The translations under genes and the position numbers were made by a program. The notes under the pieces are model-generated. The model did no database searches. It worked only from the letters and a program-made list of their open reading frames with translations, and had not been told where the DNA came from. From positions 868,001-932,000 of the forward strand of contig JALQBC010000004.1 in NCBI GenBank assembly GCA_023375675.1: a DNA stretch of 64,000 nt, written 5' to 3'. The stretch comes from Cytospora piceicola (Eukaryota > Ascomycota > Sordariomycetes > Diaporthales > Cytosporaceae). Below, one piece after another: positions 8,716 through 50,544 of this stretch; positions within the stretch are counted from its first letter, which is position 1; every line of letters begins with the position of its first letter.

Positions 8716-9061
8716 CGAGAGCGATTTTTTCCTATTTTCGGTAGGTCTTGACTCCTGAGACACTGTCTTATGCGGGGTTCTGGAGTGCATTTTCGAGTTA
8801 AAGACAGTTTTTAGAGTGTATTTTCGAGTCTGATACAGTTTCTGGAGTGCATTTTCGAGTGTGATATATATATCGTGAGTTGAAACTTTATCTTTAGAGT
8901 TTGCTTTCGAGCCTTCGAGACTATAACTTAAGGCTAGCCTTCGAGTCCTGATCGTAGCTATCTCTGTCTTTAAGTCGCTCTCGCCTTCGACTTTCGAGTC
9001 TTGATCGTCTGGCTTCTATTACGTCTAATAGTCTTCTGTCCTCTGTTTATCTGACCGTGGC

Positions 9062-9945
9062 CGTATCGGTGGTATGTTTCTAGTGTATCTTACGGTCGGT
9101 CCGCTACGGTCGGCTTAGGCTACATCGAGTAAGAAAGGCGATACTAGGCTACGATGTATCTTACGGTCGGTCCGCCGCGGAACACGTAGCGTATGGCCGG
9201 TCCGCCCCGGAAGATCTACGATAGCTATAATGCCTTTCGTATGGCCACGATGGCTCTTACGGTCGGTCTGCTACGGAACTAACTGCCTAGGTAATGGCTA
9301 CGATGCCTTTTATAGTCGGTCCGCTACGGAGCATATGACGTATAGCTACGATGCCTTTTACGGTCGGTCCGTTACGGAACACGTGACTGCCTGGGTAGTG
9401 ACTGCCTGAGTAATAGCTACGATGCCTTTACGGTCGGTCTGTTACGGTCGGCTTAGGCTATACCGAGTGGGAAAGGCGATGCGGGAGGCTATAATGCCTC
9501 TCACGGTCGGTCCGCTACGGAACTGACTGCCTTGGTAATAGCTACGATGCTTTTTACGGTCGGTCCGCTACGGAACACGGAACACGTAAGGTATAGCTAC
9601 GATGCCTTTTACGGTCGGTCTGCTACGGAACACGGAACACGTAAGGTATAGCTACGATGCCTTTACGGTCGGTTCGCTACGGGATATGTAACTGCCTAGG
9701 TGGTGACTGCCTGGGTAGTAACTGCTTAAGTGATAGCTACGATGCCTTTTACGGTCGGTCCGCTACGGAACACGTAATATATAGCTACGATATCTTTACG
9801 GTCGGTCCGCTACGGTCGGCTTAGGCTATACCGAGTGGGAAAGGCGATATTAGGCTATAATACCTTTTACGGTCGGTCCGCCCTAGAAGATTTACGATAG
9901 CTACGATGCCTTTTACGGTCGGTCTGCTATAGAACACGTGACTAG
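9062..9945 (+). repeat. Tandem array of ACGGTCGGTCCGCTACGGA units
   Basis: More than a dozen degenerate units, each with the core 'acggtcggtccgctacgga' followed by 'acacgta' or 'ctgactgcc' and 'atagctacgatgcctttt'. A longer insert, 'cggcttaggctataccgagt', recurs at about 9110, 9450 and 9820. The core is itself partly palindromic (CCG...CGG). The right TIR has a shorter inverted version (about 49885-50165). Such subterminal arrays are typical transposase-binding regions in large DNA transposons; binding is inferred, not seen. Confidence 0.75.
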
Positions 9946-9983
9946 TTAAGCCACCTATAGCACTTTTCCCTAGGACTAATTTA

Positions 9984-10080
9984 GCTGTGATGGCTGTGAT
10001 AGCTGTGATGGCTATAATAGCTGTGATAGCTGTAATAGCTGTGATGGCTGTGATAGCTGTGATAGCTATAATTATAAACA
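9984..10080. repeat. GCTGTGAT(G/A) microsatellite
   Basis: About ten 9-10 base units of 'gctgtgatg', 'gctgtgata' and 'gctataata' types. The corresponding right-TIR position (49803-49832) keeps only a short degenerate 'agctattacagttaaat' remnant, so the array expanded or contracted after the two TIRs diverged. Confidence 0.7.
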
Positions 10081-10173
10081 CGGTAGTAATTATATAAATA
10101 TAGCCGGTTAGTAAGCTCGCCTTTTAATTTTAGCGACCGGTTTATTAGCCGGTTATATCGATTCGAATGTTCG

Positions 10174-10248
10174 ACCGTAACCTTAACCTTAACTTTAACC
10201 TTAACCTTAACCTTAACCTTAACCTTAACCTTAACCTTAACCTTAACC
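10174..10248. repeat. CCTTAA hexamer array (telomere-like), left
   Basis: About twelve nearly perfect CCTTAA units at the inner edge of the left TIR. A second short copy (10353-10381) follows a duplicate of the CCGG box. The unit is hexameric like the fungal telomere CCCTAA but is not that sequence, and RIP at CpA would not convert one into the other. Confidence 0.85.
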
Positions 10249-10574
10249 TCCTAGGTACTTACTAACCTGAACGTTAGTAAGCTCGCCTCTTAATTTCAGC
10301 GACCGGTTTACTAGCCGGTTATATTAAATTAAATATTATCGACTATAACTATAACTTTAACCTTAACCTTAACCTTAACCTCGACTACGTTATAATACAT
10401 ACCGATATCAATAAGGTCTATAAACTTATACGTAGTTAAATTAAAATAAAATCGAGGTTAATACTATTAATTAATATGTCCTTATCGTTATCTACGAGTG
10501 TTTATTATATATACATTTATAAAGTATATTAGGCCGGTCTTTCTTTTAAAATCATATAAAATATTAAAGACTAA

Positions 10575-11350
10575 CTAACTATATAAAGTATATCGTCCTC
10601 CTTCTTTAACCTAGCAGCGAGAGCCTATTACTCTTTATTAGTAGTTTAGCGGCCCTTATTATTAGTAGTCTAGCGGTCTTTATCGTTAATAGTCTAACGG
10701 TCCTTATCCTCCTCGTCTTTTTCGATAGTAAGCCTTTTACGTTTAGATAATATCGCCTTAAAAGAACCGCTTTAAGAAATATTAAAAAGGGACCGATCGT
10801 AAACCTTATAGCTATTAGCTAGCTTAATAGCCGTAAAGCAGGTATAACTATATATTATAATACGGTCGATACCGCCGGCGACCTAATAGTTAAACGAGTA
10901 GTGCTTTTCTTTAACTTTCGTTATTTTAGCTTAAACACGTTATTTACGTTTAAGGTATAGCCTTAGCTTATTTTATACGGCGATTTAATATATTTTAAAA
11001 ACGAAGGTACAGACGCGGCCTTAGTTATCTTTTAAAGCTAGGCCGAAGGCGTTAATACCCGGTACGTAAGGCTTTTTAAATACTTCGTAAATATTATTTA
11101 TAATAAGAAAGGCTTTATAAAGGACTTTATAAAGGCCGGAGCCGACTAAGTATTATAAGTATTTATATATATAAAGGGAATTAGATAATACTTATAGAAA
11201 GTTTTAACTTTACTTAAGTTTTAGGTTTCGGATATCTTATTAATAAAGTAAGTAAGTAATAGCGTTAAATAAGTTTTATAGTTTTTTAGCCGGGTAGTAA
11301 TTAGTTTAAAAGTAAAAGTATATAAAGTTTAAAAGTAAAAGTATATAAAG
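10575..11350 (+). pseudogene. Degenerate frame next to the left TIR (unknown)
   Basis: Followed in one frame (phase of position 10742) across about 255 codons with about 14 TAA/TAG interruptions, each explainable as RIP of CAA, CAG or TGG. It begins with a hydrophobic stretch containing a 24-base in-frame repeat (10640-10700, pattern ISSLAVFIV). It continues with a mixed globular-looking part including NIKKGPIVN, KAGITIYYNTVDTAGDLIV and TRYVRLFKYFVNIIYNKK. The original start may be an ATG now read ATA near 10575. It is the first frame inside the left end, where giant elements often keep their recombinase, but no catalytic motif could be recognised. Orientation is inferred from composition. 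Confidence 0.4.
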
Positions 11351-11520
11351 TTTAAGAGTTTTAGGCTAACTAAGAGTACCGATAGTAGATAATTATAATA
11401 GGCGACTAACAGATCTTCTCTTTAAAAGTTAAGTATATAAAGTTTAAGAGTTCTAGCTAACTAAAAGTACTAGGACGATAGATAAATATAATAGACGACT
11501 AACGGATATTCTCTTATATA
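11300..11520. repeat. Short tandem repeats, 24 and about 110 bases
   Basis: First 'aaagtttaaaagtaaaagtat' repeats with a period near 24. Then a longer unit starting 'tataaagtttaagagtt' and containing 'gactaacagatcttctctt' appears twice (about 11343 and 11441). Both are degenerate and inside RIP-mutated DNA. Confidence 0.6.
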
Positions 11521-13754
11521 GAATCAGTCTGTATTTAAAGTAACGATATTTTATAGAGAACTGTAAAAGTTTAGATTAAAGTTTTTTATTACTTAAAAAC
11601 ACTGTATACACTTTACCTTACCGCCGCTAGCTATATAGAAATAACGACCTTTATTTATTAAGCAGGTCTTACTTTACAGGTAGGTCTTACTTTATAATAA
11701 TATCTGATTTACTATCGATAAGCAGAGAAAGAGAGAGAGGTATCGTATAGTATATAAAACTTATAAAGTATATAATAGCTAATAGCGTTTTATTTATTCG
11801 GCTGTTTTTACAGTTCTAGCTACTTTTACTACTAAGAACGTAAAAGCAGCTAAGAACGTTTACTATATATAGGTTTCGGAGTTATAAGGTTTCGGAATTA
11901 TAGATAGCCGGTAATATTTAGAATATATAATATAAGCAGGAGTTTTAAAAAGGGATCTTTTAACTCGAGTATCTTTTTATAGACGAGATACCGGTTAAGT
12001 AAAAAGACAATAAAAAAGCTAACTAATTAAAGCAATAAAAGCGATATACTAATCGAGGTTATTAAATAGTATTATATAATTAATAGCCGAAGTAAAAGAC
12101 GTTATATTATACGTTTATTTATCTAACTAAAAGAATTAATTACTTATAATAAGATTTCCTTATAAATATATTAAAAGCTATATCTAGTATACTAAAATAA
12201 TGTTCTATTAGGTATAAAACATACTTAAGAAAACATATATACCTTAATATAAAGTACTTTAGTAAAAAAAAAAAAGGTAGATAGTTAACCGGGGTGTTTA
12301 CAGACTAAAGTAACTACTAGCCCGAAGATAACTATAGCTACCTTTACGTATTATATCTCTCCTTTAACCTATTAGCTATAGGGGCGACTTAACTTATTAG
12401 TTATAAGTCTTACGGAGTTACCCCTTACTATAAAAGTATTAAGTCTTTACTTAATTTAATACCCTTAAAATAGTAATAATCTTTAATCTTTTTTTCGGTT
12501 TTATACAGCCTATTAAAGTTAAAGATTAGTATAGGTTTAGGTTTAAGTTTAGTTTAGTCCGGTAGTGTTCGTTAACGATAGAGATAGCGGTTTATTTCGA
12601 TATACCTATAAAATATATACCTTATATACTAAAAGCTATATTTAAATAAAAAGTAACTTTAACCGGTTATTTAATTTAGGTATAGGCGAGGAGGAGGTAT
12701 ATATAGCAGCCGGGGTAAGTATTTAAAACGGTCTATAACGTAAGAATAAAACAGTAAAATAATATAAAGGTATAAACGCGGCTAGTATAACGTAAGTGTA
12801 TAAGTTTAAATAGAAACGGCATAAGACTTTTTAAGCGCTTACGTTAATTAAAAGGCAGCGTTTTAAAGTACTTATATAATTACTACTTTATTAACTTTAG
12901 CCTTAACTATAATAACTACCTACCTAAATACCTAACTTAGTTAAACGTAAAAGAGGTTAAACGTAAAAGAAGCTAAACGTAAAGAAAGCTAAACATAAAA
13001 GATAGATTCCCTACTTCGAGCTAGTTATAGAAAGTAACCTTTTTCGCTACCTTATTAAAGGTATTAGGTTAAGCTACTTTTACGTTTCCGATTTTAGTTA
13101 AGACCTCTGTATAAAAGTAAACAGACTAAAACGATAAAAAGGCTAATACGATTTTACTTAACTTTATATATTATATAACCTACCGGAAGTTTACGTGTAC
13201 GGCTATAGCTATAGCTACGGCTACCTAGCTTAAGGTTTATTTTCCGCTATAGTATAGCTTAAAAAAAGTATAAATAGCCGAGGCGATAGTAAAACGATAA
13301 TAAAAAGCGGTTTAAGTTAAAGGATTTCTTTACGATAAGTCGGGGTAGCTATACTAAAAGAAGCTTTAGCCGGGACGTTATAAATAAGTTATTAGCTAAC
13401 GATAAGTTTACAGTCGTTTAAAGATAGCCTTTCCGCTTAAGCTTTAATTATTAAGCCTAAAGCGGGAAAGCCTTACGAAATACTATTATATCTTTTATAA
13501 CTACTTATTAAATATCTCGGTAAAAATATAATATAAGGGATAGTATATAAACAGGGATATTACTACCGTCTTTAAGATATTATAATACAGACTTCCGGTA
13601 TTCGGTTTAAAAACTTATAAGTAGCTTAGCCTGTTTATACTATTAAAACCCTTCGGCCTTTAAATATTTAATAAAAAGGCGATAACCTTTTAGTTTATCG
13701 AATTAAACGCTATCGGCTTAAATATACTAATTTCTTACCTTAAAGTAAAGATAA

Positions 13755-14310
13755 TATAGCTTCGGCTTAGCCTTTTATACCTTTTCTATTAAAAGAGCTC
13801 GCTTTTTATACCTTCTCTATTAAAAAAGCCTTAGCTTAGCCTTTTATACCTTCTCTAATAAAGGTAAAAAAGCTTACCTCTTATACCTTCTCTACTAAAA
13901 GAGCTTTAGCTTAGCCTTTTACCCTTTCTCTAGTAAAAGTAAAAAAGCTCGCCTTTTATACCTTTATTAAAAGAGCCTTAGCTTAGCCTCTTACCTTTTC
14001 TTTAATAAAAGTAAAGGAGCTTACCTCTTATACCTTTATTAAAAAAGCCCTAACTTAGCCTCTTACTTCTTTTTTAGCAAAGGCAGAAGAGCTCGCCTCT
14101 TATACCTTTACTAGAAGAGCTTTAGCTTAGCCTCCTATCCCTTTTTTAACAGAAGTAGAAAAGCTTACCTTTTATACCTTTATTAAAGAAGCCTTAGCTT
14201 AGCCTCTTACCCTTTTTCTAATAAAGGTAGAGAAGCTTACTTTTTATACCTCTGCTAGTAAAGCTTTAGCTTAGCCTTTTATACCTTTTCTATTAAAAGA
14301 GCTTTATAGG
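13755..14310 (+). repeat. 72-base minisatellite, about 7 copies
   Basis: The landmark TTAGCTTAGCC recurs at 13831, 13906, 13978, 14050, 14122, 14194 and 14266, that is steps of 75 once and 72 five times. Each unit also holds 'ttataccttt' and 'taaaagta'. Steps are always multiples of three, which suggests in-frame expansion inside a coding region (24 residues per unit). Confidence 0.82.
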
Positions 14311-14457
14311 GAAATCGTAAAAATATTTATCCTTAACAGGTTCTTTAACTTAAGACTAAAGTATAGTTTTACCTTACCGGTACTTATATAAACAGATTAT
14401 TCCTTATAAAGACTCTATATCGAAATAACTAAATATAACCTACCTACAGTAAAATTA

Positions 14458-14612
14458 GCGTTTATAAACTCGGCTAAAGACGATAAAATATCGGCGTTTA
14501 TAAATTCAGTTAAAGACGATAAGATATCGGCGTTTATAAACTCGGCTAAAAACGATAAGATATCGGCGTTTATAAACTCGGCTAAAGATAATAAAATATC
14601 GGCGTCTATAGA
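14458..14612 (+). repeat. 36-base minisatellite, 4 copies plus a partial
   Basis: GCG at 14458, 14494, 14530, 14566 and 14602 starts units that read AFINSAKDDKIS on the + strand. Twelve residues per unit, charged and stop-free, so very likely a coding repeat. Confidence 0.85.
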
Positions 14613-16225
14613 ATAGGCGTTACGTAGTATATAAATACCGAGCGAGATAAATTCGTTAAACTAACTCTGTCTTAGTAGTAAATATAAACCTGTTTTAAAT
14701 AACTAGAAACGATATTATCTTAGTCGATACGTAGTTTTTCTTTAAAAAGCTAGTATTCGAGAATACCGAGCAGATCGAGTAAGTTACTCTACTTTATACT
14801 TTAATAAAAACTAACTAGTCCGTTACCTTAAATAGTCTATTAAACTTAAAAGTAGTAGTTTTAGCTTTCCCGATATTCTTTAAATAAAAGTATAACTACT
14901 ACCGGATAATAAACGATAACCTGCTATCTCTTATAAACGGTATATTCTATACGGAGTAGAAGGGGGTTTTTAAAAGCTAGCTAAGCTACTATTATCTTAG
15001 TATTATTATATTCGACAGTAATCTTTTTTATCCGGGCCGCTATTATAAAAGCTTTAAGTACGTTATAATAAACCTTTATACGTAGCTTAGTAACCCCGAT
15101 AACTGCCTTAAAAAAACCGAAAAGCCGGTAGTTCGGGTTTATAATCTTTAGTTATATAACCTTTTAGCTTAAATTAAGCGGTATTATAACGATGTTTTCC
15201 CCTGTTAAAGTAACGGCGAATATAACTAAAGTACGTCCTCTTTTATATTAACGTAATAGACTATTTATAAAGTAAAACTAACTTTAACGTATAGGCTAAT
15301 AGGTCGGAACGTTTATTAAAAGCTAAAGGATTAACTACGGTAGAATCTATTAAAACTAACCTATGTTTAAAATATATATATAAGTTTAAGCGCCTTATAT
15401 AAAGTAATTACTCTTACCTTAGATATTCCTAAAGGTTATTAATAAGATAAAGCTTAATAGATAATAATATAGATTATATATTTTACACTTACGTATATTC
15501 CTTTTATATATATATAAACAGACTAAATTCCGGATCGGTTTTTTCCTTACTTTATTAATTTAATATAATATATAGCTACGTTTAAAAGATATAGTATATA
15601 TACTATTACCTATACTTACCTTCGGCTAGTTTTTATAAAAACTTAACTTCCTTCGGCTCGCCGTAGATTATAATAGCTTTAAAGACTTAAAGTATTTATA
15701 AGCCGAGAGAAGAAAAGGCGTAACTTACTATATTAAAGTTTATTATAAGGTTTATTATCGATCTGTATTAGCTTTTAATTATCTCCCTCCTATATAATCT
15801 ATAGTTTCGGATTTAATACTATACGAAAAGCTAGCGTCGCGGTAATAACTAGCTAACGAACTCTCTTCTTTATATCTAAAGTAGCTTTACTTTATTTATA
15901 AGTTTTAAAAAAATATAAATAGAAGCTATATATAAATATTAACTTTAAAACGTTACTACTATAGCTACCTTTTTAAATCCTATTCCTTTATATAATACTA
16001 CTTAAACCCTATGCTTAATACTTATTCTACCTTTTTAACTGTCGGATTACTCGGCGATAGCTTAAATAATACTTTTAAGTACTACTTTTACCTTACCGCC
16101 GAAGCCTAAACCTCGATAAGCCGGGTTGCCTTTAAAGTATCGTTATAATAAAAGAAAAGATAACTTTAATAAGTAAAGACCCTTATAAAAAACTTAATAA
16201 TAATACAGAAAAGACAGAAAAGCTA

Positions 16226-17320
16226 CGGCCGGTCGACTTTCTTTTAAATCCTCGACAGATAATAAAGCTAGCTAAAATCTATAGCGATAGCGGCGCTAAA
16301 CAGGACCGGCAGCTTATACTCGAATAAAGAAAACGTATACTACTATAGCTATAGCGTTTTTAAGCCTTCCGGCGTACCTTTAAACTCCTTTAATACTTAG
16401 ATTTAAAGTAAGACGTGCTTAAAGGTCGTTAAAACCGCGTACTATCTTATATTAGCCGCTTATTTATATACCGAAAAGGCCGATATACTTAAAGGAGATA
16501 AAGTAGTTCGTATTTCGAATACGTTAACAGGATAAGTAGTTTACTCCGGCGTAGTAAAAGGGCGTAGTTATAGTACTTTATCTTACTTTAGTTAATATAA
16601 TACGGTTTTTAAGTAAGATAGTTAAGATTAATATAAAGCGAGTTATAGTATAAATAGCTGCCGTTATACCTAATAAACAGCTTATACTCGACTAAGTTAT
16701 TAAGTTAAATCCCGCTTTATAGCTAGTATTCCGTCGAAAACTAAGCTAACGCTTTAAATAATATAGTAATATAGTCTTTTTTTCTATAAAACTTTATATT
16801 ATTAATACCGTACCGGCCTTAAGGTAGATAACTTACTATATAAGGTACGATTAGCTTCGAGTATACTACCGGCTTAAAATTCTATATTAAAGTTTCCGAC
16901 GATACTATCTTTTACTCGGAAGTTAAAAGGATATATATACTAGAATACTCGTATATAACGCTTTACGAGTTTATTAGCTTAGCTATACGTTAGTTTAGCC
17001 TTTACTTCGCCTTATATATAAGCTAGAAAACCCCCTTTTATTACGTAGAAACCTTATTCGACCGTTTAATATTATAGATAGGTATAACTTTAAAGTAATT
17101 CTTATAGTAGTCTTAACGCTTCTTTAAAGCGTAAGTCTTAAAATTTACGTCGGAACCGACCGGGTAGTCGCTTAAATACTTTAGAAAGCTGCCGATAAGA
17201 ATATAACGGAATATTTTATCGCCGTTATAGTTATAAGCTAACGGCTAAATCTGTCTTTTATAAGGCTATATCGCTAAAAAGTCGACAGTAATAAAAGTAT
17301 AGCTTATAGCTTTACTATAA
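16226..17320 (+). pseudogene. Degenerate frame, unknown product
   Basis: One frame (phase of 16226) holds for about 365 codons. Stops are frequent (roughly one in eight codons), but there is an uninterrupted stretch of about 50 codons at about 16830-16985, containing SFEYTTGLKFYIKVSDD and VKRIYILEYSYITLYEF, and other readable parts such as RQIIKLAKIYSDSGAKQD and FTSEPTG-SLKYFRKLPIR. No family was recognised. Support is weaker than for the frames at 20.6-21.5 kb and 28.5-29.5 kb. Confidence 0.3.
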
Positions 17321-19420
17321 ACCTTTTATTAATATTATATACGTATATAACGCTATAGATTTTATAGCCGTAAGAAAGGCCTTTTATAAAAAATACCGTC
17401 GAGCCGCTTTTCGCGGTACTAATATATTAAGTCTTATTCGTCGTTTATAATAGTATTATAGTACCGGGCAGGAGGCTTTTTATACTTTCCGGCGTTATAG
17501 CTAAATACCTTTAACCTTTAACGTTATCGGAGTATTTAATAGTTACTTATAGCTGTTTTTAAAGTCGAAGTACCTCGAGTATTATTTTAATTTATTATTA
17601 TAGTAATCGGAGCGCCTAACTTTACTACTTACGATAGTAACAGTTTTATATAGCTTTTAAAAAACTATAGTTTAGCTAAAGATACTTTTATCTGTTAGGG
17701 TATATATACGTTCATTATAACTCTTCTATAAGCGACTCGTTAAGTTCGGATTTCTTTATAGTAAAGAGTATAATTATTTTTTATACCGGAAATACAGTCT
17801 AAAGGACTAAGAATATAATATACGAGTATAATCGTGAATAAGCGGTAAGGTGCGAAAATACCGATATATAATAACGTTAAACGAGATTCCCTTTATTTCT
17901 TATTTATCTAAAACTTCTTATTTAATTTAAAGGTTATCTTATAAGCGGTATTAATAATTAGCGAAACACAACAAACACGATAACTTACCCCTACTTACTA
18001 TTTTATCCGGCGCTCTTTAAGATAGCTATAATCTTAAACAGGCTAAGCGGCTATTTTTAGTCTATAGCCTATAAGAGGCTATAGACGATACGGTAGCGGT
18101 TTTCGGCTTATACCTTAAATACGTAAAGAAAGACAAGGTTATCGATAAAGCCGACCTATATACCGGTTATACCGGTTAGCTCTTTTATAGTTATAGTCTT
18201 TAAAGTATCGGCGACACGCGTATAATAGAACTTCCGGATATTATCTTCGCCTTTTTTTAACTTACGCCGGAGGGGGTTTATAAGGTAATCGAAGCTTAGT
18301 TAGTCGAGGGCTTTATCTACGACTTACTTCCTCTTTATATTTAAAAGGATAAGTATATCCTTTTCGGACCTGTTCTACTCGGAATATAAAATAGTATAAA
18401 ACATTTCGATATTAAGGTATAAAGGCTTAATTTAAAACCGCGCAGTATTATCGACGTCCTTATTATAGATAAAACCGTTGTTTAATATCGTTAACGGCTT
18501 TATACTAAAGGAGGCGGATTTAAAATGTATTAGTACTAGTTTATAAAACGACGAAAGTTAAAACCTACGTAGAAAATATAAGACTTTAAAAACGAGATCT
18601 TAGACCGTTAACGGCTTTATACTAGAGAAGGGTCTAGGATGTATTAGTATTAGTCGGTAAGGACGACGAAAGTTAAAACCTACGTAAAAGATATAAGACT
18701 TTAAAGACGAGATCTTAAATAGTAAAAGATATAAAAGCGACGACGATATATAAGTTTAGAACGGTAAAATATAAGATAAAAGCGATATTAAAAATATACT
18801 AAAAAAAAGGTAATATAAAAAACGTTAGAATATACCGTTATATAGTTTTTATTTATATAGCTATAAGTGTTTTTTATTTTTTATTTATTTACTAAAGACT
18901 AACACTAAAGTACTTTAGGTAGTTAACCCCGAAATACTTTAATATCGGCCTTTTCGGTAGTAACTATACTAACTTTATAATCTATATCTTTTCCGGCATC
19001 TTAATTACTTAGTAGTAGAGTATTATAGGCGGCTAACCTTATAATACCTTACTACTAAGTAATCGCGATATTAAAAAAAGACTAAACACTATCGTTATAT
19101 CTGTCTTAAACCCGCCTAAAGTATATACTTATTTTTATTATAAGTCCGACTAACTACGTTACAGTTTAGTAATTCTAAATTATATTAAATATTATAACTA
19201 AGCGGCTAACCTTAAAAACTATACTTAATACGTCCTTTAATCGTATTATCCGAAACTACCTCCCTTAACCCCTTTAATCTAGACAACAGATATAATATCA
19301 CGCTACCTTAACGTGTTTATATATACGTACCTAAAACGCTATACTAGCGGAAGCTAAACCTCGACGGCCCGGATAGTCTATTTATTTAATACTTTTTCGC
19401 CGGTAGATTTAATATCGCCG

Positions 19421-20625: not shown

Positions 20626-20639
20626 CTATCTATATAAGC

Positions 20640-35296: not shown

Positions 35297-35440
35297 CATA
35301 CTCTCTAACTACCTAACTACCTACCTACCAGACTACCTACCTACTAGACTGCCCATATACTAAACTGCCTACATACTAGACTGCCTATATACTAGACTAC
35401 CTACATACCAGACTACCTACCTACCTAACTACCTATAAGT
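35285..35440. repeat. CTAC/CTACATAC simple repeat
   Basis: Tetranucleotide-based tract ('ctacctacctaccagactacc', 'tactagactgcc') between two degenerate frames; probably an intergenic spacer. Confidence 0.75.
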
Positions 35441-39242: not shown

Positions 39243-40247
39243 TTAGATAAGCTTCGAACTCGTCGGTAATTACTTATAGACTTTTAGCTTTTATCGAGCT
39301 TAAAGTTAAAAATATCTTCCGTATACTTTATCTTTCGACTTATAACATTAGAAGCCGTAGCTAGTAACCTAACTATATACAGTAGCGATAGCTATATTAA
39401 GACTGCCGAAGGAAATATATCGTTTAGCACGGCGAATAACCGGGGTACGTTATTAACGCTTCCGATAGATATACTAAATTACGAACAGCTTAAGCTAAAA
39501 ACTAAGATCGAAGCCGATTTCGTCGGTAGTCTACTTAATAAGTTCCGGAACGCCTTCGGTAAAGATATCGGCGAGAATATTATTAACGACGTATAGCTAT
39601 AGGTAGGACAGGCTAAGTCTATTTATAGCAGTATCCTTAATAAAAAGTTAAGGTATATTCCCGATATAACCGATACGATAGCCGAGAGTATTATTATAAT
39701 ATCTTAAAAGATAGCTACGATATCCGAAAATATTATAATAATAATAAAAAGGCTCGTTAATATAAAGGCTATAGTCGATAGTATAAATAAGGTTTTTTAT
39801 ACGAACTACGATAGTCTATTAAGGATATTTAATAAGCTAAGAATACTTTTTATATTATAAATACTTCTCGGCTATCTTTTTAATTTTACGACCTTTTAAC
39901 TTAATACCTTCGTTAATAGTAGTTATAGCTAAGACTAAGTATTACTTACGGCTAATAGTAGTTTTATCGAATTATTATCCGTTAATAAAAACAGCGATTA
40001 AAACGTATCGCTTATAGCCGATAGCGGTTCTGTCCGGTAAGCGTTATTATTTAATTTAATAAACAAAGATACTAATAATAAATAAATAAAGGGTAATATA
40101 AAGAACGAAAGTAGTATAAAGAATAAAGGAGATTATAAGTATAATAGTAAATATTAAACGTTAGCTATAAAATAAAAGGGGCGATTTAAAGGCTAAATAG
40201 TTCCCGTTTTTTATAACGCCTATTAGAACTTTTATTATAATAGCTAG
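39243..40247 (+). pseudogene. Degenerate frame ending at the 124-base duplication
   Basis: One frame (positions divisible by three, for example 39336, 39921, 40242) spans about 335 codons. A stretch of about 100 codons (39290-39590) has no stop; it includes TLEAVASNLTIYSSDSYIKT and QLKLKTKIEADFVGSLLNKF. A hydrophobic segment near 39850-39895 could be a membrane helix. The end is Lys/Asn-rich (KDTNNK, NESSIKNKGDYKY) and stops at TAG 40245-40247, exactly where the duplicated CCGG module begins. That coincidence supports a real gene boundary. Family unknown. Confidence 0.45.
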
Positions 40248-40494
40248 TAGTAGTAGCTATATTAATAGTAATAAGCTTAATTTCCTGTATATATAACCTA
40301 TTAGTAAACCGGTCGTTAATATTTAATAATATGTTTACCCGATTTAAATATAAACAGGTAAAGAGATATAGTAGTAGTAGCGATATTAATAGTAATAAGA
40401 TTAATTTCTTATATATATAACCTGTCGGTAAACCGGTTGTTTAAATTTAGTAATACGTTTACCCGATTTAAATATAAACGGGTAAAAGGACGAA
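40247..40494. repeat. 124-base direct duplication with paired-CCGG module
   Basis: GTAGTAGTAGC(T/G)AT at 40247 and 40371 starts two copies. Each then holds 'aatagtaataag', 'tatatataacct', AGTAAACCGGTCGTT (second copy GGTAAACCGGTTGTT), GTTTACCCGATTTAAATATA and 'ac(a/g)ggtaaa'. The copies differ mostly at RIP sites. The CCGG element matches the TIR box and the 24 kb module. Confidence 0.8.
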
Positions 40495-41042
40495 AAGAGG
40501 TTATTACCTACTAGTTTCTTATAGTATAATATTTATTAAGTAAGCTGCCTATCTTTTATCGACTTATAGTAAATTCTAAGGTTTTCGAGTAAATCGGTAG
40601 GCTTTATACTATAGCCTTTACTATTAATAGTAATTCCTATACCCTATACCTTTAAATCCTTTTACGCTCGGTAAGGGCTATACCGGGCAAGAGAGGGTTT
40701 ATTTCGCGCGGTATTATTATTTAAAGCCTCTTACGCTCGGTAAAGGCTATACCGGGCAGGACAGGTACCGTAAGCCCTACTTATTATTACGTTAACTAGT
40801 ATAGTATAAGCCCTACCTATTATACTATACGTTTATTTAAATCGTTACCTTTACATTACTTTTAAATATAGTTATAATACTAAGTCTTAAGTATACATTA
40901 ACGTTAAAACCGCCCTTTCTTCGCGAGAATATAAGTTATCTAGTATTAATCCTTTTAGCCTTTATAAACCTCCTATTAACAGTTAGTTTACTAATAGCGA
41001 AAAGATTTACGCTAAAAAACATCTTAACGTAAGCAGATCCGA
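40495..41042. other. Spacer with a repeated 'ctcggtaaggctataccgggca' tract
   Basis: Contains two copies, 67 bases apart, of 'gctcggtaagggctatacc' followed by GGGCA (about 40669 and 40736) and a 'ccctac..tattat' duplication near 40770-40825. Partly readable frames exist, but I could not settle on one because my trace slipped frame near 41170. Confidence 0.45.
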
Positions 41043-41612
41043 CTAGCTTAAATATTAATAATAGCTAATAAGGCTTAGAATCTTTGTAACTACTTATATA
41101 ACTACTTAAATAATACTTTTAGTATCCTCGTCGAATTTATCCGGATTATTTAAGACGGCTACCTAAAGTTTTCCGGCTTTATAAAGTATAATACTATATC
41201 TGATTTCGATAATAAAGCACGACGCCTCGATAATTTCGAGTATAATATCGCAGAGAGAAAGCGCTATATCTTTAAAAAGAAGCTTTAAATATCCGAGAAA
41301 GAACGTTAAGTCGAAGCTAAAAATAAGCAGCTTAATAAAAAGTCCTTTATCCTTAAGCGGTATAAGTAATATATCGAAGCCTATAATACGTAAATAAGGG
41401 AACGGGAGAGTTACTTAGTAAAGGTTATCAGTTCGATTTTAAAAGCTTTAATAAAAGCCGAGTTATAAAGCGTTTAAGCAGAGCAAAATATAAAGGTTAC
41501 TAATAAAGCTTTCTTAAAAGTAAAGGCTAAGTTATAAAAGGTCCGGAAAGCTATAAAGAACGTAGTTAGTATACTAAGATATACTAGTTCGAGGTTAAGT
41601 AACGATATTTAA
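41043..41612 (+). pseudogene. Degenerate coiled-coil-like frame
   Basis: One frame (positions divisible by three, for example 41229) for about 190 codons, ending at TAA 41610-41612. The first part reads CNYLYNYLNNTFSILVEFIR and GYLKFSGFIKYNTISDFDNK. The rest is a charged helical region (EYNIAERKRYIFKKKL, VEAKNKQLNKKSFILKRYK, IREREHY-like, KVRKAIKNVVSILRYTSS) with heptad-like spacing, typical of a coiled coil. This composition makes the + orientation credible. Family unknown. Confidence 0.45.
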
Positions 41613-41934
41613 ATAAGAAAGTCCTTAATAAATTAAAGCTATCTCGCGGCGGTCGGATTAAACTAGCCTTTATATATTAATAAGCTATTTTAAGGCATAT
41701 ACTTTAAATACTTATCTTTATAATATTAAAAACCTATAGGCCGTAGCCTGTTATAACGATACTAGTAACTTTTAGTCTCTTTTAATCTAATTAATCGACC
41801 TACTTATTATACCGTAAAGAAACTTAAACCTGTTACGTTACGATTTAATAAACTCTCCGTCGACCTCGGATATAACTATAATAATAACCGTCTTCTCTTC
41901 GACTACGATACCTTTTTTTCTACCGACCGCAATA

Positions 41935-42170
41935 CTTTCCGACAGCTAGCTATAATACCTTATAACCGCTAGCTATAATACCCTTCGACCGTTAGCTATA
42001 ATACCCTCCGACTACGGCTATAATACCTTTTACTACAATACTTTTCCCTTACTAACCGCGATTCCTTTTACTCCTCTAGTTATAATACCCTCTTATAATA
42101 ACCTGCCGCGATAACCTTCCGTAATAACCTCTTATAACAACCTACTACAATAACCTTTACTATAATTACT
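41935..42170. repeat. TAGCTATAATACCCTTCGACCG degenerate repeat
   Basis: Units of about 23 bases ending in TATAATACC, decaying rightwards into 'ataacctcttataacaacc' units. Confidence 0.65.
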
Positions 42171-44888
42171 TTTATTAATTACAATTATATTTAAAATAGC
42201 TTAATAAAAGGTAGAATATTACTTTATACTTAACTTAACGCTTAAAGATAATAGTATATATAAAACGGTCTATTAGCCGTATATTAAATAGTCGTTTTTA
42301 GCTTAACTATACCTATTCTTTAAGCGTTAGCTTTAATCTTTTAAAACTAGGTTAAATCGATTTTATCGAACAGCTCGAGAAATCTCGTTTTTAACTTAGT
42401 ATAGCTTTAAAAAAAAAGCCGTATCTTTTCCGTCCTCCTTCTTTCTTAATTTTTTTTTTTTAATCCGACTAAGCCGGAATACTACCGGAAACTATTATAT
42501 ATATATTATTATAGCTTTATCTTTAAGTTAAGTAAATATTCTATTACCGGTATCTATTTTCTCCGAGTAAAACAGTTAACGCCTTCCCTTTTATCTTTTT
42601 TAGTATACCGAATATAAGCTAAAAACCCTTATAAAGACTTACTTCCCGCACTTCGCTTACTCTAACTCTTTTATCTTTTAGATAATCTTTTAGATAATAC
42701 ATTTTATAAAAGGCTTTTTATTATTATATAAAAGATTACTATATAAAACCCGGTACTTCTACTACGCCTACGCTATTATATCCGGATACCTTCGTTTAAG
42801 GTTACCTTTTAAAATAAGTAAAACTTTTTCGTATATTATTATACCGAAGGAAACGCTTTTATTATCTAATAAAAGCCGCGAAACTAGCTTAGCCTTCTCT
42901 TTACTTTTCTTTCCGTCGACTAAATATAGAATATCCTTATTATCGAGCTTTTCTTAAAGCTAAGTCGGCGTTTAAAAGAAAACACCCTTCTTCGGCTTTA
43001 CTTTCGCTATCGGCTACGTCGGCTTAATACCGGTTTTTTAATATACAAGAAGCGTACGCCTCTTTACGTAAGAGAGATCTGTTAAGGTATTAACTAATAA
43101 GTTTTACTCTAAGCAGGCAGGTATACCTATACTTCGTAGCTAGTTATCTAATTCTTATTACGGCTAATTATTTAAGCTCTATCGCGGCTAATTATTTAAG
43201 CTCTATCGTAGCTATATAGTGTCTTCTACTTAAAGACATATTTATTTAGGCGTAATAGCCGTAAAAATATTACTTTGTTTTTATTATTAGTTATCGCTTA
43301 GGTTAAAGATAGTATATATACCTTTCGAAAAGCCTTTACTATAAGCGAGCTTCTACGCTAACGGGATAATCGTAAGGATATCGCTTTATAGCTAGTTCTC
43401 GACCGAAACGACGATATTATACTTAGCTACCTTTAAGTAGTTTTTATATTATAAAAGCTTACGCTTTAACAGGATAGCTATCGAGGCGTTTACTAATAGC
43501 CGATTAAGACTAATATATAAAAAAACTATTTAACCTACTAGTTTATAAGCTTAAACAGGTTTACCTATACCTTTCGGGAAATCCGAATATTTTAGCCTTA
43601 TATCTTATATAATTAGCTTAGCGAGTTTCTCTTAAAATATCTCGTTTAAAGCCGACTGTATATTTTTACGCTCGAAATATATATATATACTTTAGTAGTT
43701 TATTATAACTATATTAAAGATATCGGGTAGTAATATCCGGTACGTATTTATATTAGATCGTAAGTCTTTACTAGCTAAAGCGTTAGCGATTAATAAATAA
43801 GTAACGAGTAGTTTACGCTATTATAACTTTTAGTCTTTTCTATTTAGTAGAATACGTTAGTCGATAACCTACTAACGTAGCTTTAAAACTGTTATCTCGA
43901 ACAGTATCTTTAACCTGCTAGGTATAAGCTATACCTATTATATTATATCCGGTCGGTCTTATTCTTAAAGCTAAGACTAGTAATATATAAGTACTAGTTT
44001 TAGATAAAGTAATAGAAAGTAGGTATAAACCTTAATATAACTCGAAATAATACTCTTTTTCGTTTAATACTTTAACTCGAGAGTTCGGTCTTTAATCTTT
44101 TTAATTAATAGGTTTATAAAAGGTAATAGTTTCTCTCCGAGTAGGTTATCCTATAGTAACTTAAACTCTTATAACGTAAAGAAGATTATTAAGTAGTTAA
44201 GGTCGGACTTTTCTATAATCCTTTACTAGTTAGTAAAGCAGCGAAGGTAGTTTTCGGTCTACTAGTTTATATACTTAGGTATTTCTTATACGAAGATAAA
44301 CCTTATTAGTATCGGCTTTTCCCGGTCTTTTAAAGCTATAGTAATTTCGAAAGTTAATAAGTAGTTTAAGTATAGTTAAGCATATATTAGTATAAGACTT
44401 ATAGTTTTATTTTTTAAACAGCTAAATTTAAACCTTAATATAAAAGTTTTCTAAATAACTAAACAGGTTTACTAAGTATCTCTATTAAGTACCTTTATTT
44501 TTTTAAAGGCAGATTAAAAAAGGCATATTTAAGCTAGTAATATTAAGAGGTTAATACTACTTTTTAAACGCTATCTTAAATACTTAGTTTTATCGGCATT
44601 TACTACTAGGTAGAAATAATAATAGGTATAAGAAGAGAAATCTTCTTAAGACCTTAGATATTTAGGCTTTTATTAGATACTTAACTTAATACGATATAAA
44701 CCTACCGATCGATATAACCTTTAAGTATATTTTAACCTTAAAAGTAAATATTAAAAAAAGTCGAACGTTATATACAGAAAGTTAGCCTTAAAGATTAAAT
44801 CCGAACCTTTACGTTTTATTATTAAATAAATACTACGTTAAAGTTTTAATATAGTTTTATTACTAAGCCGTTTACTTACCGTCGCCTG

Positions 44889-45090
44889 TCTAATAAAGAT
44901 ACTATTATTTAAATATCTTAATTATTCTGCTCTCTGTTAAGGCGATAAGCTAGTCGATAAAGATATTGTTATTTAGGTATTTTATATACCTTATACTACT
45001 TTCCGTTAAAGCGATAAGCTAGTCGCCTATCGCCTATTTAATAAAGATACTGTTATTTAAGTATCTCGTATACCTTATACTGCTTTCTGT
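44889..45090. repeat. Tandem repeat, period about 83, 2-3 copies
   Basis: 'aaagatactattatttaaatatctt' and variants at about 44895, 44957 and 45051, each followed by 'ttaaggcgataagctagtcg' type sequence. Spacing is uneven. Confidence 0.65.
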
Positions 45091-46380
45091 TATTAATATT
45101 TAGCTTTTTATCGGGTAACTATTACGTAATAGGCTAATACTATTTCTTAAAGCCGCCGTAGTTGCTTAACCGACTTAACAGATATCTAGATCTAACCTAT
45201 ACGAACTAAATAGGTATAATAATATTTAAACTGTTAAAACTATAGGCAGACTTACCTTAAGTTTTACTTTAGTTCTGCCTGCTTTTTACTTTTAATATTA
45301 TACTTTATATTTTATATAAGCCTAGCCTGCTTAATACTTATATTACCTACTATTATAAATAGATCTATTAAACTAGTTTTTAATATTAGGAAGTTATTTT
45401 TTAAGCCGACGCCTACGTAAATATAAATCATTAATTTAGCCTTTAGCTTTATAGTAAGTCGAAACTCCTTATACCTACTTCCTTACTCAATACTAATTCT
45501 ATCTGCTTTATAGCTAACCCCTCGAGGAGACTACCTAATAGCCGACTAACCCTATATAATGCCTAGCTAGTTATCGACTAAACTATCGATAGTAAGTTAG
45601 AAAGTATCTTATTCTTTATCTCGACGGATTAATACTAACAATCTTAGCTAAAGCTAACCCTTAAAAGAAAGAACTAACTAGCCGACTAACTAGCCGACTA
45701 GTCTTATACGATACCCGAGGGTTCATTTTAGCCTTACGTTATTAAAGATAAGTATGTAATTGTTGTTAAAGTATTTATTAACTAAAAGGCTAGTAATAAA
45801 GTATTCCCGGTCGGTCTTAAGGATATTCTTACGTTAAAACTAAAAAACAATCAGTTTTAAGAGTATTTTCGAAGCGATAAAGCATTTATACCCGGCCTTT
45901 CTTAAACATAGTATAATAAATGTCTTAAAAACGTTATAAACAGCTTCCGGTATAACTTTCACGAGATCTCGTTAGCTAATATCACTTCGTCGAAGGCTGA
46001 CGAAACCGAATTTCTAAAACTATAAGCCTTTAACTCCTTAACCGGCTAAAACGTCCTCTTCTCTACTTTACTATTTAATATATCCTTAAAGGCTTTTATA
46101 CTATTCGCTCTTCGTTAAAAGGCCTTATACTATTATATAAGGGCTAATCTAGCAGTTATTATAAGCTTTTTTAATTAGGTAAAAGGCCTAGATATATTTA
46201 TTTTAAACCTTATAGTCGCCGCTTATTAGTAAAAGGTTTTATAAGATTTCGAAACGCTTTAAGATTAATACCTTCCTATTCTCTAATAGCTTACCGTTAT
46301 TATAAAGAACTTTACGACAGCTCGACTTTTACTAAAGCTTAATAACCGTAAACGTTAAGCTCGGCTAAAAGAATAGGCCG

Positions 46381-47140
46381 ATATAATAAACGAAAACTTA
46401 AAGATAGTTTTTAAGACCGTCTTTATTAAGAGAAAGACGTAGATTTTAAAAGAGAAGCTCGTAAAAGCTAAACGAAATAAAACTCCGCTTTTTAAGCTCC
46501 GACTTAATAAGCTTAGATTAGTCGACTACGTATCGACTTAAGAAGCGTCTCGGATTTAATAAAGCTGTTTAGCTATTTTTAAAAGCTATAGCTTCGGCGA
46601 ATAAAAGTTTAAAACCTATATACTTCTCGACGGTATATATATCTATCCTTTCTATATCTTTTACTATAGCTAGTTATACTCCCTTAACTATACGATCGGT
46701 ACTTTATATATTATACTAGTTTTATTAAATTTCTATATAAAATATAATAAAGCTATAGTACGCTTCGACCTTTATAAGCTTAAACTAGGTATCTATTAAG
46801 AGCGGTTCCTCTTTTAGATTATTCACAACGTCTTATAATAAGTCGTTTAAGCTGTTTAAGAGGTTAGTAACCGGAAGACAGACAACCGCTATTCGCCAGA
46901 CTTTATACTTAAGGTTTAATAGTCGATTACAGACCGTTAAGGCTTTCCGATCGTCTCGTTCGAGAATAGTCTTTTCCGACACGTTACTACTATACAAGAA
47001 CCTCCGAACTCGGTAATGTTTTCAGGGTACTAAAGTCTTTTATTACCGGTAGTTAGACTTATTAAATATCCGGACCTATTCGATCCGGTCGAAAGCTTTT
47101 AAAATAAGTTTTATAACGTTATCTAAAATAGTAATATTAT
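46381..47140 (+). pseudogene. Degenerate Ser/Arg-rich frame
   Basis: One frame (line-start phase, checked every 60 bases) for about 250 codons with about 15 stops. Readable stretches: KRLGFNKAV, LFLKAIASANKSLKPIYFST and RQTTAIRQTLYLRFNSRLQT. The stretch 46790-47010 is stop-free for about 70 codons and basic. Family unknown; it may belong to the same gene as the next frame, in a different phase. Confidence 0.4.
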
Positions 47141-47762
47141 AAATAAGGTTATAGGCTTTTACAATCCTTTATTTTAGCTAGCTTAGTTTACTTACTTATT
47201 ATAGATTTTAATAAGTAATCTGTTTTAAAAGCTTTACTACGAACTTAGTATAAAGCGATAGGCTTTACCTAAAAAACACCTTAAAATAAAAGCCTTTAAC
47301 TCTTCGTTTCCCGACCTCGATACTCTAAACCCTTTATTAGCCTATCTTATAAGTAGTTAAGACTAGCCGTTCTCTTTCTAATACTTATACCTAAACTACC
47401 CTCCTTTTAACCTCGACGCCGGTTAGTACTAGTATTATCTTAACCGCTTTTATAGTAACTAGTAGTATCGGTATTAGTAATACTAAAAGGTTTTCTTTAA
47501 TTAAATCGCTTTAAAAGCTTATTTTAAAATTAACTTTTATCTCGGTATAGAAGGTATTCTTGACTAAGCTTATAACTTTTTTTAGAAATACCTTTATTAT
47601 AACTATATCGACTATACTAAAAGGTAGGAGAAATATAAAAATAAAAAAAACCTAAATTAATACCGCTAAAGTTATATACTTTTAGAAGAACGATCGTCTC
47701 CGACAATAGTTTACGAATATAGCTTTTATTAGACGAGTAAAATAAGATAATTTAGCATATAT

Positions 47763-49290
47763 TAAGCTACTAAACTCTATTAATAATATATAAACGACCG
47801 CGGTAAGCCTAACTAAAGGCTGTCGAAAACGTTCTAATACTCGGTTTATTATATCGAGACTAACTATAAGAAGGATTAACAGAGATATAAAAACTCGGAA
47901 ACCTATAAAAAGGTCGTCTTCTACTCTAACTTCTGTTCTAAAGGTAAGATAGATATTATCGATAAGGCTGCCGTTTAAACGTAGAAAGCTGTTTAAAAGC
48001 CTTTTTTATCGTAGGTACTTTAAGATTCTTAGAATAACTATAAGGCTACGTAGGATCGCGGTCTGTAAAAGAGGGGCTAAAACGACGAATAGAAGGAAAA
48101 ACCTTTTATTTATAAGGCTTATAAATACGGATTTATACAGACCTAAAATTTCTATCGATATCTTCGAAGTCTAGAATACGAGTTCCGTAACCTGACCTCT
48201 GTGCTATTACCGCGGGAACACTATTATTAGTATTATAAATTCGAAACTAATATCTCTTACCGATTTAAAAAGTATATAGCAGAACGCTATCTAAGAGTAA
48301 AACCTTAAAGCACGCCGTTAAACCTCGTAGGGAAGGTTAAGAACCTTTCTAAAGGGCTTCGAGATATCCTTTCAAGTAACGACGGCATCCTTACCGACCT
48401 AAAGATACACGTATATTCCGAATACCTTTATTCATTCTCTTAAAGAAGCAGGCTTTTATAATACTAGTTAACAGACAGCTGCTATATAAACTACGATATA
48501 CTTAAGTCGATCGATAACGATATTTTAATCGCCTATATAAAAGCGTACATATATTTTAAAGGAGAAGGTTAAGTATTTACTAGACATGTTACTACTAATA
48601 GAGGTATTGCTAAATAATAGCCGGTTTCGAGTATTAAAAAGCCGACCTTAAAACATTATAATTCTAACGATAATTACTCCCCGGAGAGATCTTTAAAACG
48701 TTAGTATTCGAAGCCGACTTTAAAACGTCGGAATTCTAACGATAATTACTCCTTAGAGAGATCTTTAAAGCGTTAGTGTTCGAAGCCGACCTTAAAATAT
48801 CGGAATTTTAACGATAATTACTCCTCGGAGAGATTTTTAAAGCGTTAGTATTCGAAGCCGACTTTAAAACGTCGGAATTTTAATAATAATTACTTTTCAA
48901 AAAGATTTTTAAAGCGTTAGTATCCGAAGGTAAAATTAAGTAACGAAATCGAAACTACTATATATCGGCGTTTATTATAGCTAGCCGCCTTTTAGCTGTT
49001 AAGTAGTAGTATATCGATACTAATATAGGCGGTAACGTTAGACGATATCGTAGATAAGGGTAAGAATAGCGCCGGTAGTATTAATGATAACGACGGTAGC
49101 GATAGTAGCGATAGTTTTAAGGCTAACTATGCCGACGATAGTAACGATAGTTCTAAAGGTAAACAATAGGTTTAAGGGTGCGAGGTGATATAAGGAAATA
49201 AGGGCAAGGATATTCAGATTAGACATATGAATTTAAGCGTTAGGATATTATACGAACGATTATAACTATTTTATCGCTTTTATCGCTTTT
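47763..49290 (+). pseudogene. Terminal degenerate frame next to the right TIR
   Basis: One frame (positions divisible by three, checked at 47943, 48639, 49041) for about 500 codons. The N-terminal part includes YIETNYKKD, RYKNSETYKKVVFYSNFCSK and KGKIDIIDKAAV. The middle includes FYRYLRSLEYEFRNLTSVLL, GKVKNLSKGLRDILSSNDGI and DLKIHVYSEYLYSF. Four in-frame 24-residue basic repeats follow (KPTLKRRNSNDNYSPERSLK type), then an acidic Ser tail (NDNDGSDSSDSFKANYADDS). It ends about 150 bases before the right telomere-like array. It is the longest readable frame and the natural candidate for a DNA-binding function, but no catalytic motif was recognised. Confidence 0.48.
48642..48928 (+). repeat. 72-base coding minisatellite, 4 copies
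   Basis: GCCGAC at 48641, 48713, 48785 and 48857: exact steps of 72. Each unit reads as a basic 24-residue repeat with LKRRNSNDNYS in the frame that continues from upstream. Confidence 0.88.
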
Positions 49291-49456
49291 AGAATTTAAT
49301 CGAATAGCCTTCCTTTATATCCCTTTTAAGCCGGAGGCCCTTTATAACTGACTTTTAAGCAACGATTCCTACGTTACCTATATCGTATTTTAGCAGCTAT
49401 TTCTGGTATTAGTTATAGATTCTACTTATCGTGTTCCGGGTGTACGAAGTATCGTA

Positions 49457-49719
49457 GTTAAGGTTAAGGTTAGTGGTTAAAGTCGAGGTTAGTAGTTAAG
49501 GTTAAGGTTAGTAGTTAAGGTTAAGGTCAAGGTTAATAGTTAAGGTTAAGGTCAGTGGTTAAAGTTAAGGTCAGTGGTTAAGGTTAAGGTTAAGGTCAGT
49601 AGTTAAGGTTAAGGTTAGTGGTTAAGGTCAAGGTCAGTGGTCAAGGTTAAGGTCAGTAGTTAAGGTTAGTTAGATATTAAGGTTAGTCAGATGTTAAGGT
49701 TAAGGTTAAGGTTAAGGTA
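49457..49719. repeat. TTAAGG hexamer array (telomere-like), right
   Basis: Degenerate array of GGTTAA units with 'ggtcagtggtt' variants. It is the inverted counterpart of the left CCTTAA array at the inner edge of the TIR. It is longer (about 260 bases against 75) and more diverged. Confidence 0.85.
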
Positions 49720-50544
49720 AAATATTCGAATTAATATAACCGGCTAGTAAACCGGTCGTTAAAATTAAAAGGCGAGCTTACTAACCGGCTATATCTTATA
49801 AATTTTATTTACTATTTTATAGCTATTACAGTTAAATTAGTCCTAAGGAAAGGTAATATAAGTGGTTTAACCGGTTATATATTTTATAGCGGACCGACTA
49901 AAAGAAGCATCGTAGCCTTTCGTATCGCCTTTCCTACTCGGTATAGCCTAAGCCGACTGTAAAAGGCATTATAGCCGTTACGTGTTCTGTAGCGGACCGA
50001 CCGTAAGAGGTATCGTAGCCTAGTATCGCCTTTCCCTACTCGGTGTAGCCCGGACCGACTGTAAGAGGCATTATAGCTATATATCTTCTGTAGCCGAGTG
50101 TACGATATACTTCTTTCGTACCGCCTCTTACCCGGTATAGCCTAAGCCGACCGTAGCGAACCGACTGTAAGACGTATTAAAAACACTACCTATACGGCTA
50201 CTGTCAGATAATTAGTAGTCTATTAGGCGTAATAGAAGCTAAACGATTAGGACTCGAAGGCCGAGGGTCGAAGGTTAAGGGCGATATAGAGATAGATAGC
50301 TACAATTAGACTCGAAGGTCGAAGGTCGAGAGTCGAGGGCGATATAGAGATAGTAATAGTTACGATTAAGACTTAAAGACTAATTCGAAGGTCGAGGATA
50401 TACTCTAAAGACATAGTTTCAACTTACGATATATATATCACACTCGAGATGCACTCTAAAAACAGGTTTTAAACTCGAAAATACACTTTAGAGATAATGT
50501 CTCAGGAGTTGAGACCTATTAAAATCGGAAATTATCGCCTCTCG
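49457..50544 (-). repeat. Right terminal inverted repeat
   Basis: About 1.09 kb. Every block of the left TIR is found in inverted order: hexamer array, AAAAGGCGAGCTTACT box with two CCGG sites (49740-49790), TAAATTAGTCCT, a short ACGGTCGG array (49885-50165), 'cgaaggtcgagg' tract (50245-50395), ACGATATATATATCAC, GTCTCAGGAGTTGAGACCTA and the terminal ATCGCCTCTCG. It is shorter than the left copy because its unit array has fewer copies. Confidence 0.78.

What the first reader, a model, noticed from the sequence alone, without database searches (positions are those of the whole stretch)
8716..50544. A 41.8 kb element bounded by long, block-by-block inverted repeats
At least seven distinct sequence blocks occur in the same order from each edge inwards, in opposite orientation, and the change in dinucleotide use coincides with the outermost block on both sides. 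This is the architecture of one very large DNA element inserted between the MET12 and YJU2 genes. Elements over 40 kb with TIRs above 1 kb are rare in fungi, and no family I know fits directly. Maverick/Polinton-like, KDZ-type or an undescribed class are open options.
Basis: partly seen in the sequence, partly recalled or inferred. Interest (0 to 1): 0.88.

Follow-up and report, generated by a model that had tools for sequence, protein, structure and literature searches.

The report
Giant dead transposon family in fungus
The 41.8 kb block is one copy of a large family of mostly 35-42 kb jumping elements that spread through this fungal genome, apparently inserting without the usual target duplication, and were then mutated to death by the fungus's own repeat defence; no known domain was found in the copy examined.

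Summary
The finding is real. The window holds one complete mobile element, 8705-50554, with 1.2-1.7 kb inverted ends built of the same blocks in the same order (chain score 493, 0 in 200 shuffles). Its genes recur at 49 or more places in this 43.6 Mb genome. Sixteen copies with both ends read are 18.8-41.9 kb long. None has an exact abutting target duplication of 3 bp or more, and A follows the right end in 15 of 16. In a disrupted ammonium transporter, joining the flanks with one C restores the protein and joining them with none does not; three other disrupted genes fit one C but do not prove it. Three genes keep the order C-B-A and are destroyed by repeat-induced point mutation (74-106 stops per gene A copy, 39 copies). 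Six-frame Pfam scans of the window copy give nothing above cut-off, although RIP-simulated host genes and real RIP'd Helitron and DUF3435 pieces are found. Polinton, Starship and Helitron are not supported; KDZ conflicts on the duplication. Best reading: an undescribed superfamily of giant DNA transposon. Catalytic fold and host species are not identified.

The parts
8705..50554 (.). Complete element (41.85 kb) between MET12 and YJU2, at a C^A step, with no abutting target duplication of 3 bp or more
   Evidence: Ends shared with other copies; composition step
8705..10400 (+). Left inverted end: terminus CCCTTGTTAACCGAGAG, subterminal repeats, array of ~55-nt blocks, TTAACC hexamer array
49400..50554 (-). 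Right inverted end: terminus (reverse complement) GCCTCGACATCGAGAGGC, blocks in the same order, GGTTAA array
8785..8860 (+). Three direct repeats GTGYATTTTCGAGT at 8785, 8816 and 8847 (31-bp period), candidate recombinase-binding sites
   Evidence: ATTTTCGAG with up to 1 mismatch 1-5 times in the first 300 nt of 31 left-end reads (some ends read twice) and 0-3 times in 6 right-end reads; mononucleotide-shuffled means 0.06 and 0.05
45183..48770 (+). Gene A (core about 45660-48590), candidate recombinase; 104 in-frame TAA/TAG stops
   Evidence: (39 of 69 candidates scored), third-position transversions p=4e-5
36855..38250 (+). Gene B (about 465 aa)
   Evidence: (p=1.5e-12)
15968..17490 (-). Gene C, in two frames joined near 16451
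   Evidence: (p=4e-8 and 1e-5)
10640..11536 (-). Gene D, small conserved frame near the left end (weak coding signal)
   Evidence: third-position p=0.04
41022..44100 (+). Further conserved, probably coding stretches shared between subfamilies
   Evidence: 41022-41606 p=3.5e-4; 42400-44100 p=0.03
34475..35002 (+). Open frame of tandem peptide repeats in a GC-richer island (about 34.0-36.0 kb)

Best explanation
The block is one copy of a family of giant, multi-gene DNA transposons of an undescribed superfamily. Shown: two different ends in inverted orientation, no exact abutting target duplication of 3 bp or more in 16 of 16 pairs, a strong A after the right end, 49 or more places carrying the core genes, gene order C-B-A, and RIP damage in each of the 39 scored gene A copies. 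Shown in one gene and fitting three others: insertion at C^A that adds or removes no target base apart from one ambiguous C. Inferred: protein A (about 970 aa) is the recombinase and binds the subterminal repeats; B, C and perhaps D are accessory or replication proteins; strand exchange leaves no repaired gap (rolling-circle-like or site-specific-recombinase-like, probably through a circular or free intermediate).
For: Ends recur genome-wide (63 matches, 40 of 86 candidates scored; 56 matches, 40 of 98). In 16 pairs no exact abutting duplication of 3 bp or more; A after the right end in 15 of 16 (p=6e-9), G or T next in 16 of 16. Ammonium transporter (C1): with one C between the flanks, 7 chains labelled MEP2 or ammonium transporter align to residue 121, past the junction at 104; with none the same 7 stop at 103 and lose about 4 bits. 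Frames fitting one C: HET-like gene 60+500 aa, another 203+142 aa. Gene A (39 of 69 candidates scored), B (64 of 64) and C (78 of 88) fall into 49 clusters, 38 with all three genes, B in the middle in all 38. Codon-position bias of transversions shows past protein selection. Window against C12: 3,725 transitions and 239 transversions in 28,610 sites.
Against: No catalytic domain was identified; both AlphaFold models failed (pLDDT 30 and 32). Gene A is not always beside the same end type: in the window it lies by the right end, but on C79 (19 kb copy) and C58 the end next to it matches the left-type query, which weakens the idea that A pairs with one end. The aldo/keto reductase junction does not discriminate: 0 or 1 inserted base score alike. 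In several pairs other frames stay open with 0 or 2 bases. One pair has a 2-bp match, and an offset 5-nt near-duplication occurs in 5 of 16 where shuffled pairings reach at most 3. 62% of transitions against C12 are outside the CpA context (2,307 of 3,725); I read this as CpA saturation plus CpT. No empty site was seen directly. The end-to-end junction on C26 is unexplained.
Confidence: 0.62

Rival explanations
1. Giant non-canonical Helitron (Helitron2/Helentron-like) that inserts by rolling circle without duplication and whose Rep-helicase is unrecognised or supplied by another copy.
For: No duplication and a one-base ambiguity at the insertion step, as described for Fusarium Helitrons (PMC5148889, 12 of 25 passages shown), and asymmetric inverted ends. 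Two RIP'd Helitron_like_N matches exist in the genome.
Against: Helitron_like_N (PF14214) rings at 2 places, neither inside an element mapped here, although one of them carries 17 stops. No helicase family above cut-off in six frames of the window copy. Ends are kb-long; the right-end hairpin is no stronger than shuffles (z=-0.52).
Confidence: 0.15
2. A tyrosine-recombinase element related to Starships or Cryptons with a very divergent captain.
For: Giant size, RIP, asymmetric inverted ends.
Against: DUF3435 (PF11917) rings only as two pieces at one place on C51, probably a nested insertion. No abutting direct repeats of 3 bp or more.
Confidence: 0.15
3. Endogenous linear DNA virus or linear plasmid (Polinton-like) integrated many times.
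For: Long inverted ends with repeat arrays; several genes; one head-to-head end junction (L078).
Against: No Pfam family above cut-off in six frames; PF03175 gives no match in the genome (but its controls also gave none). No relative in viral contigs. A constant C^A step argues against end-joining capture.
Confidence: 0.06

Closest known systems
Helitron2 / FoHeli (PMC5148889, passages read)
   Same: Insertion without target duplication; one-base ambiguity at the insertion step; asymmetric inverted ends
   Different: FoHeli are about 5-11 kb with short inverted repeats and a Rep-helicase; here mostly 35-42 kb, kb-long ends and no such domain found
Starship (PMC12257634, passages read)
   Same: Giant size, fungal host, RIP damage, asymmetric terminal inverted repeats
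   Different: No DUF3435 captain in the window copy and only one place in the genome; no flanking direct repeats; kb-long inverted ends; 49 or more places in one genome
Polinton/Maverick (recalled)
   Same: Long inverted ends, several genes, tens of kb
   Different: No 6-bp duplication; no polymerase B, integrase or capsid domain found
KDZ: Kyakuja-Dileera-Zisupton (PMC12730594, abstract and one results section read)
   Same: Fungal DNA transposons with several genes
   Different: 8-bp duplication reported for Zisupton-1_PGr; none here; no Pfam match
CACTA/EnSpm (PMC12730594, one results section read; subterminal repeats recalled)
   Same: Repeated subterminal motifs
   Different: CAC..GTG ends and 2-5 bp duplications are absent

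Membership tests
Polinton/Maverick | Long terminal inverted repeats | tested here: met
Polinton/Maverick | 6-bp target duplication (recalled) | tested here: not met
   0 of 16 pairs
Polinton/Maverick | Protein-primed DNA polymerase B, integrase, capsid (recalled) | tested here: not met
   No Pfam family above cut-off in six frames of 10300-49400 of one copy; PF03175 search of the genome empty, but its controls were empty too
Starship | DUF3435 captain gene | tested here: not met
   PF11917: two pieces at one place on C51 only
Starship | Flanking direct repeats | tested here: not met
   one offset class of near-repeats in 5 of 16
Helitron2 | Insertion without target duplication | tested here: met
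Helitron2 | Rep and helicase domains | tested here: not met
   PF14214 at two places outside the elements mapped here; no such family in the window copy
Helitron2 | Terminal hairpin | tested here: inconclusive
   Window ends fold no better than shuffles, z=-0.52 right and -0.66 left
KDZ | 8-bp target duplication | tested here: not met
   0 of 16
KDZ | KDZ transposase domain | tested here: inconclusive
   No Pfam match in the window copy or in ten reads from other copies; proteins heavily mutated, fold not predicted
CACTA/EnSpm | CAC..GTG ends, 2-5 bp duplication | tested here: not met
   Ends CCCTTG / GCCTCG; no consistent duplication (2 bp in 1 of 16, 3 bp or more in 0)

The most novel reading that the evidence does not exclude
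These elements are a new class of giant eukaryotic mobile DNA: mostly 35-42 kb, kb-long asymmetric inverted ends, seamless insertion at C^A, and a conserved gene set whose recombinase belongs to no described family.
Probability: 0.33. Interest if true: 0.9.

Novelty: new variant of a known kind. Interest (0 to 1): 0.74.

Why it matters
To my knowledge, giant fungal transposons are known chiefly as Starships. A second kind, perhaps 4% of one genome (49 places times the 38.7 kb median of 16 copies is about 1.9 Mb, an extrapolation), with kb-long inverted ends, insertion into genes without duplication and no recognised domain, would mean that large AT-rich RIP'd blocks in fungal genomes may hide mobile-element classes that homology-based annotation cannot see. 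The end motifs, the C^A rule and the C-B-A gene set give concrete handles for finding unmutated relatives.

Tried and rejected
Identification of the proteins failed by every route tried: profile search of solved structures with genes A, B and C (none); protein database with alignments of A and B (7990 and 7995 candidates scored, none at E<=1) and with an unmutated 83-residue relic of gene C from C25 (53 candidates, none; weak PDB matches only, E 0.29 and above; no Pfam match); viral contigs with A, B, C and a left-end pattern; bacterial and archaeal genome contigs with a right-end pattern; AlphaFold on A and B (pLDDT 30 and 32, so no fold search was made). I did not verify that fungal proteins are well represented in the protein database, so its silence is weak evidence.

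The few Pfam matches with E<=1 inside the element (TTRAP 0.069, Decapeptide 0.001, PMG 0.003, CUX1_N 0.89) are all below the curated cut-offs, and I take them for chance or low-complexity matches. A terminal hairpin was dropped. Target duplications were sought at many offsets. The aldo/keto reductase junction, first taken as proof of the one-C rule, proved not to discriminate when a no-insert control was run; odds for the best explanation and the novel case were lowered for this and for gene A's variable end. Papers: the searches listed nothing that I recognised as this family from titles and abstract openings; only PMC12730594 (abstract, outline, one results section), PMC5148889 and PMC12257634 (passages) were read.
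Full report
WHAT IS THERE. The window is C36:868001-932000 of a 43.6 Mb, 99-contig genome. RIP and the neighbours MET12 and YJU2 mark it as a fungus; the species was not identified. Between the two genes lies an AT-rich block of 41.85 kb with ends at 8705 and 50554. Its edges are inverted and built of the same blocks in the same order: a chain of five blocks scores 493, and none of 200 shuffles gives any chain; further paired blocks appear. In the window copy the terminal ~60 bp of both ends share a core ending in CTCCTGAGACA, but the outermost bases differ (left CCCTTGTTAACCGAGAG, right in reverse complement GCCTCGACATCGAGAGGC). The other 15 pairs read show the same two ends, partly by construction, because they were located with these motifs (up to 4 differences allowed).

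A FAMILY. The left-end query gave 63 matches (40 of 86 candidates scored) and the right-end query 56 (40 of 98); 34 of the first 41 rows start within ten bases of the terminus. Sixteen copies with both ends read measure 18.8 to 41.9 kb, median 38.7, fifteen of them 34.7 kb or more. Four other pairs are wider by coordinates (about 54, 60, 62 and 102 kb on C47, C58, C90 and C51) and may hold nested insertions. Searches with genes A, B and C give 49 clusters: 38 with all three genes, 9 with B and C, 1 with A and B, 1 with C alone (one row per place was kept by hand, secondary pieces and the C25 relic were dropped; gene A was scored for only 39 of 69 candidates). One B+C cluster, the 18.8 kb copy on C79, does hold A. 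B lies between A and C in all 38. Relative to A, both B and C are read in opposite directions in different subfamilies. Gene A is beside the right-type end in the window, but on C79 (18.8 kb copy) and C58 the end next to A matches the left-type query, so the core has been turned relative to the ends at least once.

CODING. In divergent copies transversions pile up at third codon positions in A (95/83/145 by position, p=4e-5), B (p=1.5e-12) and C (p=4e-8 and 1e-5), as expected of genes once under protein selection. Of twelve conserved stretches tested, D is weak (p=0.04), 18006-18830 and 42400-44100 weak (0.02, 0.03), and the A N-terminal part, H, I and J show nothing. The 39 gene A copies scored carry 74-106 in-frame stops each, at most one of them TGA; the window copy has 104.

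RIP. CpA/TpG is depleted about sixfold against the flanks and TpA enriched. Between the window copy and C12, differences are 3,725 transitions to 239 transversions in 28,610 sites; against C9, 4,571 to 264 in 34,490. Most of these transitions (2,307 and 2,779) are not in CpA context. I explain this by saturation: CpA is nearly exhausted in both copies, and the per-copy estimate is 0.73 for CpA, 0.25 for CpT and about 0.05 for other C. About half of the transversions (124 of 239; 122 of 264) lie at 44.7-48.7 kb, so the gene A part of the window copy looks chimeric. The rest of these three copies was close to identical when RIP began, which implies a recent burst in this subfamily.

INSERTION. 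No exact abutting duplication of 3 bp or more occurs in 16 pairs, and one of 2 bp in a single pair. Of offset near-duplications, one class (5 of 16, shuffled maximum 3) slightly exceeds chance and is unexplained. The base after the right end is A in 15 of 16, with G or T next in 16 of 16; G is common at -7 and -2 of the left flank (15 and 13 of 21). Some copies sit in genes. The best case is an ammonium transporter on C1. With one C between the flanks, seven chains labelled MEP2 or ammonium transporter align to residue 121, past the junction at 104, while the other 18 of 25 chains, one more MEP2 among them, stop at or before 103; with no base the same seven stop at 103. Two further genes give long frames with one C (60+500 aa, HET-like, the motif recalled and not tested; 203+142 aa), but other frames also stay open with 0 or 2 bases. 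An aldo/keto reductase has only six residues beyond the junction; 15 of 60 listed chains reach past it with one C, and with no base the result is about the same, so it is inconclusive. The empty site is therefore inferred as ...C A..., the C being ambiguous between target and element end.

WHAT IT IS NOT. Six-frame translations of 10300-49400 with X at stops give no Pfam family above cut-off; ten reads of genes A, B and C from other copies give none at E<=5. The method works on RIP'd genes: two host genes (of four simulated) were found at 3e-30 and 7e-49, and at 8e-27 and 8e-53 with the measured spectrum. Real RIP'd Helitron (17 stops) and DUF3435 pieces in this genome are found by their families, outside the copies mapped here except the C51 place. 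Genes A, B and C have no match in solved structures, and A and B none in the protein database at the sensitivity allowed. These negatives are limited by the mutations, by word-based candidate choice and by unknown fungal coverage.

MECHANISM. Insertion without duplication argues against most cut-and-paste transposases, which repair staggered cuts. The remaining choices are rolling-circle-like joining, site-specific recombination, or a transposase with blunt or one-base stagger. Different left and right ends and the 31-bp-spaced subterminal repeats suggest a protein that recognises the ends; gene A, the largest conserved gene, is my candidate. This step is inference.

WHERE IT STANDS. The family, its ends, the lack of duplication, its core genes and its death by RIP are shown. 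The exact one-C rule rests on one discriminating gene and agreement of others. Superfamily and catalysis are open. On the features tested it fails Polinton, Starship and Helitron on content and KDZ and CACTA on target duplication.

Noticed in passing
L079 (C25:1455601-1458000), about 996-1244, minus strand: A decayed, un-RIP'd relic of about 60 residues of gene C lies in sequence of ordinary GC, so a related gene once existed here outside the RIP'd copies.
   Followed up: partly
L078 (C26:347930-348300): Two right ends stand head to head two bases apart (CGAGG-TA-CCTCG), a palindromic junction with no explanation yet.
   Followed up: no
C51:181911-182709: RIP'd DUF3435 (Starship captain-like) pieces lie inside a 102 kb pair of element ends, suggesting a nested giant element.
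   Followed up: no
C14:1048290-1048820 and C57:602280-602882: RIP'd Helitron_like_N remnants, the only two matches that one search found.
   Followed up: no
window 34000-36000: GC-richer island (0.42-0.47) inside the element with coding tandem repeats and a 175-aa open frame, less scarred than its surroundings.
   Followed up: no
window 44700-48700: Gene A region far more diverged in transversions from C12 and C9 than the rest of the element, suggesting exchange of this part between subfamilies.
   Followed up: partly
window 8705-10400: In the left end CpA is depleted but TpG is not (13 per kb against about 52 per kb), unlike the interior.
   Followed up: no
C79:1020503-1039297 (L056, L057) and C58: The core genes are turned relative to the end types: the end next to gene A matches the left-type query.
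   Followed up: partly
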